This document shows positions 60,595 to 61,204 of a DNA stretch of 64,000 nucleotides, piece by piece. The notes under the pieces are model-generated. The model was not told the DNA's origin. It was given only the letters and a program-made list of their open reading frames with translations, and did not search any database. A program made the translations under genes and the position numbers. Location: positions 91,075-155,074 of the forward strand of contig NZ_JACHTE010000009.1 of NCBI RefSeq assembly GCF_014145395.1, in the 5' to 3' direction. Position 1 is the first letter of the stretch; each line of letters begins with the position of its first letter. The DNA comes from Marilutibacter penaei. Lineage in GTDB: Bacteria; Pseudomonadota; Gammaproteobacteria; Xanthomonadales; Xanthomonadaceae.

Positions 60595-60741
60595 CGGGAT
60601 GTCCTGGGGCGAAATAACGGGGGATTATGCCATCTTTCCGGGGGCGGCCCCGGGGGCTGGACGGTTGGAGTGCGGCTCGGCGCTGGAGTTCCCCCCCTCC
60701 CCCGACAGGACCTGATCAGTGGGCGCATCTCGGCCCGGCGC

Positions 60742-60845
60742 CGGGGCTACGGGGGCTTGGCTCTACCCTCGGTCGGGGCTTTCCTGCCCCGACTCGGGCG
60801 CGCGCCATCCATGGCGCGCTCGGACGCCAAGCCCCCGCATCCCCG
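60742..60845 (+). repeat. Structured palindromic repeat unit, copy A
   Basis: Outer arms 60742-60761 and 60826-60845 are inverted with 17 of 20 matches and enclose two hairpins. Hairpin 1 is GTCGGGGC (60772-60779), loop TTTCCT, GCCCCGAC (60786-60793), with flanking CCC/GGG. Hairpin 2 is GCGCGCCAT (60800-60808), loop CC, ATGGCGCGC (60811-60819). The fold would be a three-way junction. The core 60766-60819 recurs inverted in copy B with compensated changes. It resembles REP-type extragenic palindromes in general, but the three-stem layout is unusual to me. Confidence 0.75.
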
Positions 60846-60947
60846 TCACCTCGGCGATGTCACTGGAGCTTGATTCGCTGGTTGGCGCAACACGGCCATC
60901 TCGCCGGAGAGCGCTTTCCAGACCGATACGGTGTCAGAGGAAGCGGA

Positions 60948-61043
60948 CCGGCCGGGGTCCCGCGGCAGAGCCGGCCATGGATGGCCGGCGCCCGAGTCAG
61001 GGCAGGAAAGCCCTGACCGAGGGAAGAGCGGGATACCGGCCGG
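60948..61043 (-). repeat. Structured palindromic repeat unit, copy B (inverted)
   Basis: The core 60970-61023 is the reverse complement of copy A's core with six differences in 54 positions. Hairpin 2 is GCCGGCCAT/ATGGCCGGC (60970-60978 and 60981-60989). Hairpin 1 is GTCAGGGC/GCCCTGAC (60996-61003 and 61010-61017) with the same 6-base loop. The six differences form three compensated pairs. Outer arms 60948-60963 and 61028-61043 match at 14 of 16 positions, with a sequence unlike A's outer arms but in the same place. Confidence 0.75.
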
Positions 61044-61099
61044 GCCGATTCCGGTCCGATCGGGCTGCGGGGATTCCTCAGCCCGGGGCCCCGGCGCCG

Positions 61100-61173
61100 G
61101 GCCGACGTAGCACCGGCAGGGCCGCGCAGATTCTCCGCCCCACGGCCCTGATACAAGGCCGACGTAGCACCGG
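61100..61173 (+). repeat. Direct 17-mer pair flanking a hairpin
   Basis: GGCCGACGTAGCACCGG occurs at 61100-61116 and 61157-61173. Between them CAGGGCCG (61117-61124) pairs with CGGCCCTG (61143-61150). The GTAGCACCGG part is reminiscent of the GTAG-headed palindromes of Stenotrophomonas, an inference from memory. It lies just downstream of the tgt stop, on the side of tgt mRNA 3' ends. Confidence 0.6.
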
Positions 61174-61204
61174 AAATTGCCCCTCGGCGGAGAGTGCGGC
61201 TGGA

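What the first reader, a model, noticed from the sequence alone, without database searches (positions are those of the whole stretch)
60742..61043. Mirrored pair of three-stem repeat units with compensated base changes
Two units of about 100 bases lie inverted 102 bp apart between tgt and yajC. Their 54-base cores differ at six positions, and these six fall into three pairs that preserve base pairing in hairpin 1 (one pair) and hairpin 2 (two pairs). The outer arms of A and B have different sequences, yet each unit's arms pair with each other at the same place (17/20 and 14/16). Selection for a three-way-junction fold, in RNA or in extruded DNA, explains this better than chance. Possible roles: REP-like mobile element moved by a RAYT transposase, mRNA 3'-end stabiliser, or a structured RNA. 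The mirrored arrangement also allows the cores to pair with one another.
Basis: seen in the sequence. Interest (0 to 1): 0.78.

Follow-up and report, generated by a model that had tools for sequence, protein, structure and literature searches.

The report
Scattered paired CsrA-site-like RNA repeats
The mirrored pair is two copies of a repeat scattered through many bacterial genomes, one strand of which seems to be kept able to fold into an RNA with two loops like those bound by the regulator CsrA, so the finding is real and ties a repeat family to a possible regulatory RNA.

Summary
Units A (60742-60846) and B (60945-61056) fold as three-way junctions; their six core differences form three compensated pairs. 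They belong to a dispersed family: model R1 finds 22 units in this genome, sister model R2 46, and up to 125 in relatives.

Stem mismatches are strand-biased (112 C-A, 21 G-T), as expected if the complementary strand folds as RNA with G-U pairs. There both hairpin loops read GGA, mostly CA(N)GGANG, like CsrA/RsmA sites. Some relatives pass Rfam TwoAYGGAY (Csr/Rsm clan); A and B do not.

Units lie between genes, often as inverted doublets. RAYT-type transposases show no association (14 of 19 carriers, 29 of 41 non-carriers).

Best reading: a REPIN-like element whose selected product is a two-site, CsrA-type RNA hairpin. Transcription, CsrA binding and mode of spread are inferred.

The parts
60742..60846 (+). 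Unit A: three-way-junction unit, read on + in the orientation of models R1 and R2 (loops TCC); the probable RNA strand is -, which is the sense strand of tgt and yajC
   Evidence: fold z -7.56; R1 match 88.3 bits; complementary strand folds better, -90.2 against -82.3 kcal/mol with 12-nt flanks
60766..60821 (+). Core of unit A: hairpin 1, joint, hairpin 2
60779..60786 (-). Hairpin 1 loop of A, CAGGAAAG on the - strand (GGA loop)
60806..60813 (-). Hairpin 2 loop of A, CAUGGAUG on the - strand (fits CANGGANG)
60847..60944 (.). Spacer between the two units; no promoter- or terminator-like site found
60945..61056 (-). Unit B: mirrored unit, read on - in the orientation of R1; probable RNA strand is +, antisense to tgt and yajC
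   Evidence: fold z -6.90; R1 match 75.9 bits
60968..61023 (-). Core of unit B; six differences to A, all in three compensated pairs
60976..60983 (+). Hairpin 2 loop of B, CAUGGAUG on the + strand
61003..61010 (+). Hairpin 1 loop of B, CAGGAAAG on the + strand
60730..61105 (.). Possible outer limits of the doublet: 24-nt inverted repeats 60730-60753 and 61082-61105, 92% complementary; a suggestion only, no empty-site junction was found

Best explanation
A and B are two copies of a dispersed, REPIN-like intergenic element. What selection keeps is the fold of one strand as RNA: an outer stem whose sequence is free but must pair, a conserved junction, and two hairpins whose loops present GGA. The likely partner is the CsrA/RsmA dimer, which binds GGA in hairpin loops; a transcript that runs through a unit in the right direction would carry a two-site CsrA ligand. 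In the usual head-to-head doublet the transcript of either strand carries one unit in the GGA orientation; here A is sense with tgt-yajC and B antisense. SHOWN here: fold, compensation, copy number, strand asymmetry, GGA loops, doublets, patchy presence, units absent from the same gap in congeners. INFERRED: that the strand is transcribed, that CsrA/RsmA binds it, and the effect (titration of CsrA, or control of the carrier mRNA's stability or processing). How copies spread is unknown.
For: Covariation over 18 units: 17 of 30 pairs changed on both sides, 89.5% of cells paired against 75.4% shuffled and 34-44% slid. 114 units found by a pattern that ignores the outer stem: arms pair 13.67 of 16, swapped 5.58, highest of 500 swaps 6.20. 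Strand asymmetry of stem mismatches: 67 C-A to 3 G-T in 70 R2 units, 112 to 21 in the 114 units; outer stem more stable on the GGA strand in 77 of 98 R1-family units, 20 the other way, 1 tie. Hairpin 2 loop, left free by the pattern: 91 of 114 CA(N)GGANG, 14 more with GGA. Nine TwoAYGGAY hits coincide with listed R1 or R2 units, each on the GGA strand. CsrA consensus RUACARGGAUGU with GGA in hairpin loops: PMC7652899 (passage); TwoAYGGAY proposed as CsrA-binding: PMC4333381 (passages). All 19 carrier genomes have csrA; the 4 of 60 without it carry no units.
Against: No expression or binding data. No own promoter seen. GGA strand only weakly prefers the sense of codirectional neighbours, 45 to 29 (p 0.08). 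The whole R1 alignment has no asymmetry (114 G-T, 93 C-A); only its outer stem leans (30 to 57, my sum of the rows). Outer stems of G009 (2 to 6) and G018 (0 to 2) go the other way and G005 R2 units are 21 to 12 with 9 ties. Hairpin 1 of A and B lacks the N of ANGGA. csrA is in 56 of 60 genomes, so its co-occurrence says little. One-strand folding would also fit a single-strand DNA substrate. In RsmU, RsmA still bound in vitro after all four GGA motifs were changed (PMC7694677, passages), so GGA loops alone do not decide binding.
Confidence: 0.52

Rival explanations
1. Single-strand DNA element: the folded GGA strand is the substrate of an unknown strand-specific nuclease or recombinase (HUH-type or attC-like), and any RNA is incidental.
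For: Dispersed, patchy, often in inverted doublets 45-250 bp apart; strand asymmetry also fits one DNA strand; near-identical copies in G015.
Against: No candidate enzyme found; loops match an RNA-binding protein's site; attC-like arrays after cassettes were not seen in the loci read, though no integron search was made.
Confidence: 0.17
2. REP/REPIN moved by a RAYT; fold kept for the transposase.
For: Inverted doublets in intergenic space, 22 of 28 neighbours in one order, as REPINs are described (PMC3116915, passages). One Y1_Tnp gene in the own genome; 8 of 9 distant carriers have one.
Against: 5 of 19 carriers have no Y1_Tnp match, and it is as common in non-carriers; no convincing unit beside the transposase loci scanned; units of about 90-120 nt with two hairpins, where REPs are given as 14-40 nt (PMC12306157, passages).
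Confidence: 0.1
3. mRNA 3'-end element: a stable hairpin downstream of genes that blocks exonucleases or helps termination, with no CsrA role.
For: 49 of 138 units lie between convergent genes and 9 between divergent ones; folds are very stable.
Against: Does not explain conserved loops and junctions; units occur sense and antisense (45 to 29); no terminator-like site in the window stretch, and in L077 an ordinary hairpin with a T run lies between gene and unit. Avoidance of promoters alone would give the same gene context.
Confidence: 0.13
4. Non-functional palindromes whose compensated changes come from template switching during replication.
For: That mechanism makes paired changes without selection (recalled, no call).
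Against: It predicts no G-U preference on one strand, but 112 to 21 is seen, and it does not keep loops and junctions constant.
Confidence: 0.05

Closest known systems
TwoAYGGAY RNA (Rfam RF01731, clan CL00106 with the Csr/Rsm RNAs)
   Same: Two hairpins with GGA loops enclosed by an outer stem of poorly conserved sequence; some relatives of the family pass its cut-off, on the GGA strand.
   Different: A and B do not match it and none of 18 named loci with pattern units did; here units are dispersed in dozens of copies and paired head to head; the TwoAYGGAY papers were seen only as passages and table rows.
RsmU, RsmW, CsrB/RsmXYZ (CsrA/RsmA-sequestering RNAs)
   Same: GGA motifs in hairpin loops; RsmU comes from a 3' untranslated region in Xanthomonas (PMC7694677, passages). 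The best clan matches of A and B are to RsmW, each on the GGA strand, but far below cut-off (16.8 and 12.2 bits against 52).
   Different: Those are described there as individual sRNA families; this is a dispersed repeat without a promoter of its own and with no binding data.
REPINs and REPs, including SMAG of Stenotrophomonas
   Same: Intergenic, multi-copy, palindromic, often inverted pairs with a short spacer (PMC3116915, PMC2613905, passages).
   Different: About 90-120 nt with a three-way junction instead of one short hairpin; outer stem free in sequence; one-strand mismatch asymmetry; no association with Y1 transposases. SMAG consensus is GTAGTGCCGGCCGCTGGCCGGCA, unlike this core by eye.

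Membership tests
TwoAYGGAY RNA (RF01731) | Score at or above Rfam's gathering cut-off for the window units | tested here: not met
   A and B: no RF01731 match listed up to E 10, one lower same-clan match was left out by the tool. Two G005 units and units in G041 pass.
TwoAYGGAY RNA (RF01731) | Two hairpins with AYGGAY loops inside an outer stem | tested here: inconclusive
   Hairpin 2 of A and B has AUGGAU; hairpin 1 has AGGAAA, which is not AYGGAY. R2-type units mostly have both.
CsrA/RsmA-binding RNA | GGA in hairpin loops, A(N)GGA | tested here: met
   A and B: CAUGGAUG and CAGGAAAG in loops; 105 of 114 outside units have GGA in hairpin 2.
CsrA/RsmA-binding RNA | Expression and protein binding | not testable with these tools
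   No RNA-seq or binding assay available.
REP/REPIN with RAYT | Inverted doublets in intergenic DNA | tested here: met
   22 of 28 neighbouring pairs under 450 bp in one order; 1 of 138 units inside a predicted ORF, 5 at contig or locus edges.
REP/REPIN with RAYT | Association with a RAYT gene | tested here: not met
   14 of 19 carriers against 29 of 41 non-carriers have Y1_Tnp.
REP/REPIN with RAYT | GTAG or CGTC tag at the hairpin foot | not tested
   No systematic search for the tags was made.

The most novel reading that the evidence does not exclude
A repeat of Gammaproteobacteria that seeds genomes with dozens to over a hundred two-site CsrA/RsmA ligands in untranslated regions, so that free CsrA is set by many mRNA tails at once and each new copy puts its neighbouring transcript under CsrA: a distributed, transposable sponge.
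Probability: 0.25. Interest if true: 0.86.

Novelty: new variant of a known kind. Interest (0 to 1): 0.62.

Why it matters
Dispersed bacterial palindromes are usually treated as DNA parasites or passive mRNA-end hairpins. Here the mismatch pattern says that one strand is kept as a folded molecule, most simply RNA, and the conserved loops name a testable partner, CsrA/RsmA. If true, a repeat family becomes part of a global regulatory circuit, and the few TwoAYGGAY matches in Rfam become the visible edge of a much larger family. The comparison of G-U with C-A mismatches is also a cheap general test of whether a palindromic repeat acts through one strand.

Tried and rejected
RAYT association: tested, not found. 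Mobile carriers: no match of the 302 bp in plasmids or phages and none of the exact core pattern in viral contigs. Core inserted into ready-made hairpins, as a reason for free but paired outer arms: not favoured for the own genus, because the outermost stem is again conserved there. Own promoter or terminator: none seen in aligned flanks or by consensus scan of the window stretch. Exact ends and target duplication: the tgt-yajC gap lacks units in congeners but gave no alignable junction; near-identical G015 copies share long flanks that look mosaic, without clean ends. Rfam on the window: only sub-threshold matches. Papers: the ten searches listed no paper that I recognised as describing this repeat family; only open-licence full texts are held, supplements were not searched, and listings were cut. 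First version of the 114-unit count kept 34 of 131 matches because of a faulty text pattern; replaced. Gene contexts rest on a home-made codon score, not a gene finder. The core identity of 89% is largely imposed by the search pattern, and hairpin 1 loops there are partly imposed too.

Full report
OBSERVATION. The finding is accurate. The two cores differ at six positions that make three compensated pairs, one in hairpin 1 and two in hairpin 2. Each unit folds as a three-way junction far better than its shuffles, and the pair appears as a long interrupted inverted repeat. Folded as 571 nt of the - strand, the region prefers long-range pairing of its two halves, so for this homologous pair both local and long-range folds are open.

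A DISPERSED FAMILY. A DNA search with the 302 bp matched 9 of 60 genomes, the own one included. Covariance model R1, from A, B and 16 other units, rests on strong covariation: 17 of 30 pairs changed on both sides, 89.5% of cells paired against 75.4% in shuffles and 34-44% with partners slid; one weaker measure, further pair types, was reached by 27 of 500 shuffles. R1 found units in 16 of 60 genomes at E up to 0.01: 22 in the own genome, 21 in G011, 11 in G015. Model R2, for a sister type that partners many R1 units in the own genus, found at E up to 0.1: 46 in the own genome, 89 in G005, 125 in G023, 19 in G003, 9 in G029, and none in the other 4 of the 9 genomes given. The two lists partly overlap, so they should not be added. 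Within the genus G001, G002, G004 and G006 have none by either model.

ANATOMY. Outer stem, hairpin 1, a short conserved joint, hairpin 2, back to the outer stem. In own-genus R2 units the outermost stem and the pairs next to the junction are conserved while the middle of the stem varies and still pairs; loops and junction bases hardly vary. Some own-genome units carry a further hairpin cluster at the tip of hairpin 1 or 2.

INDEPENDENT TEST. A 30-base core pattern that ignores the outer stem was scanned through species genomes. Of 131 matches 12 lacked the expected GGTC and 5 had cut arms. In the 114 left, the outer arms pair at 13.67 of 16 register positions, against 5.58 (highest of 500: 6.20) when arms are swapped between copies, and are 34% alike between copies. 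In a draw of 369 genomes of the class 10 had the exact pattern, one with 47 copies; the reversed control pattern matched none. Viral contigs had none.

WHICH STRAND. C-A on one strand is G-U on the other, so the folded strand is the complement, where the loops read GGA. Outer-stem energy agrees in 77 of 98 R1-family units, 20 against and 1 tie, and the whole fold in 90 of 98. Against: the whole R1 alignment shows no asymmetry (114 G-T, 93 C-A) and only its outer stem leans (30 to 57, my sum of rows); outer stems of G009 (2 to 6) and G018 (0 to 2) go the other way; G005 R2 units are 21 to 12 with 9 ties. One-strand folding fits RNA best but would also fit a single-strand DNA substrate.

WHAT THE LOOPS SUGGEST. 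In hairpin 2, which the pattern left free, 91 of 114 loops fit CA(N)GGANG, 14 more have GGA and 9 do not. The CsrA selection consensus is RUACARGGAUGU with GGA in hairpin loops (PMC7652899, passage); A(N)GGA is called the primary site in PMC4066749 (passage). In A and B hairpin 2 is CAUGGAUG and hairpin 1 CAGGAAAG. Two G005 units pass Rfam TwoAYGGAY. Over 60 relatives 14 genomes have a match and 4 pass the cut-off, the own genome having none; nine of the listed hits coincide with listed R1 or R2 units, each on the GGA strand. PMC4333381 (passages) proposed that family as CsrA-binding. A and B do not reach it, nor did anything in 18 named loci with pattern units. So 'works like a CsrA ligand' is the claim; 'is TwoAYGGAY' is not met for A and B. 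All 19 carriers of the 60 have csrA and the 4 genomes without it carry no units, but 56 of 60 have it, so this says little.

CONTEXT. Of 138 units examined, 49 lie between convergent genes, 45 between codirectional genes with the GGA strand sense, 29 antisense, 9 between divergent genes, 1 inside a predicted ORF, 5 at an edge; 45 to 29 has p 0.08. Among neighbours under 450 bp, 22 of 28 have the order of A and B; in the outside sample the five closest pairs, 154-280 bp, do too. In own-genus loci 8 to 10 of 15 such doublets join two unit types, so mutual pairing of equal cores is not the rule. No promoter or terminator was found. The tgt-yajC gap is 613 bp here, 129-144 bp in G001, G002, G003, G004 and G006, and 262 bp with one R2 unit in G005; of 30 yajC loci only those of G000 and G005 held units, and in 3 of the 30 tgt was not adjacent. 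In G051, of another family, a doublet lies just upstream of yajC (tgt not checked there).

MOVER. Y1_Tnp is in 14 of 19 carriers and 29 of 41 non-carriers (Fisher p 1.0) and in 8 of 9 distant carriers. No mover was identified.

VERDICT. I call it a new variant of known kinds (dispersed palindromic repeats; two-site GGA RNAs). Expression, binding and mobility remain to be shown.

Noticed in passing
L073, L075, L077, L080, L083 (own genome); also L336 and L392 (named-genome loci): The tip of hairpin 1 or hairpin 2 of R2-type units is replaced by a further cluster of hairpins of about 90-100 nt; a similar insert beginning TTGCTCG sits in hairpin 2 of L336 (Stenotrophomonas geniculata) and L392. 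The loop may be an insertion target.
   Followed up: no
G005 units such as L264:546-659 and L263:549-662, with flanks: A subset of units sits inside a further long inverted repeat of the type GTCATCCCGAGC...GAGGGATCTGC, which lengthens the outer stem greatly.
   Followed up: no
window 61100-61116 and 61158-61174: Two direct copies of GGCCGACGTAGCACCGG just downstream of tgt, beside unit B.
   Followed up: no
tgt-yajC gap in L160 and L162: In other genera the same gap holds different short palindromic repeats that look like ordinary REPs (GTAGGAGCGGCTTC, GTAGAGCCGAGCTTGC), so it may be a general landing place.
   Followed up: no
G015 loci L113-L121: Near-identical copies share long flanks with the ends GGGAGCGCCTGCCTC / GAGGCAGGCGCTCCC, a mosaic repeat around the unit.
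   Followed up: partly
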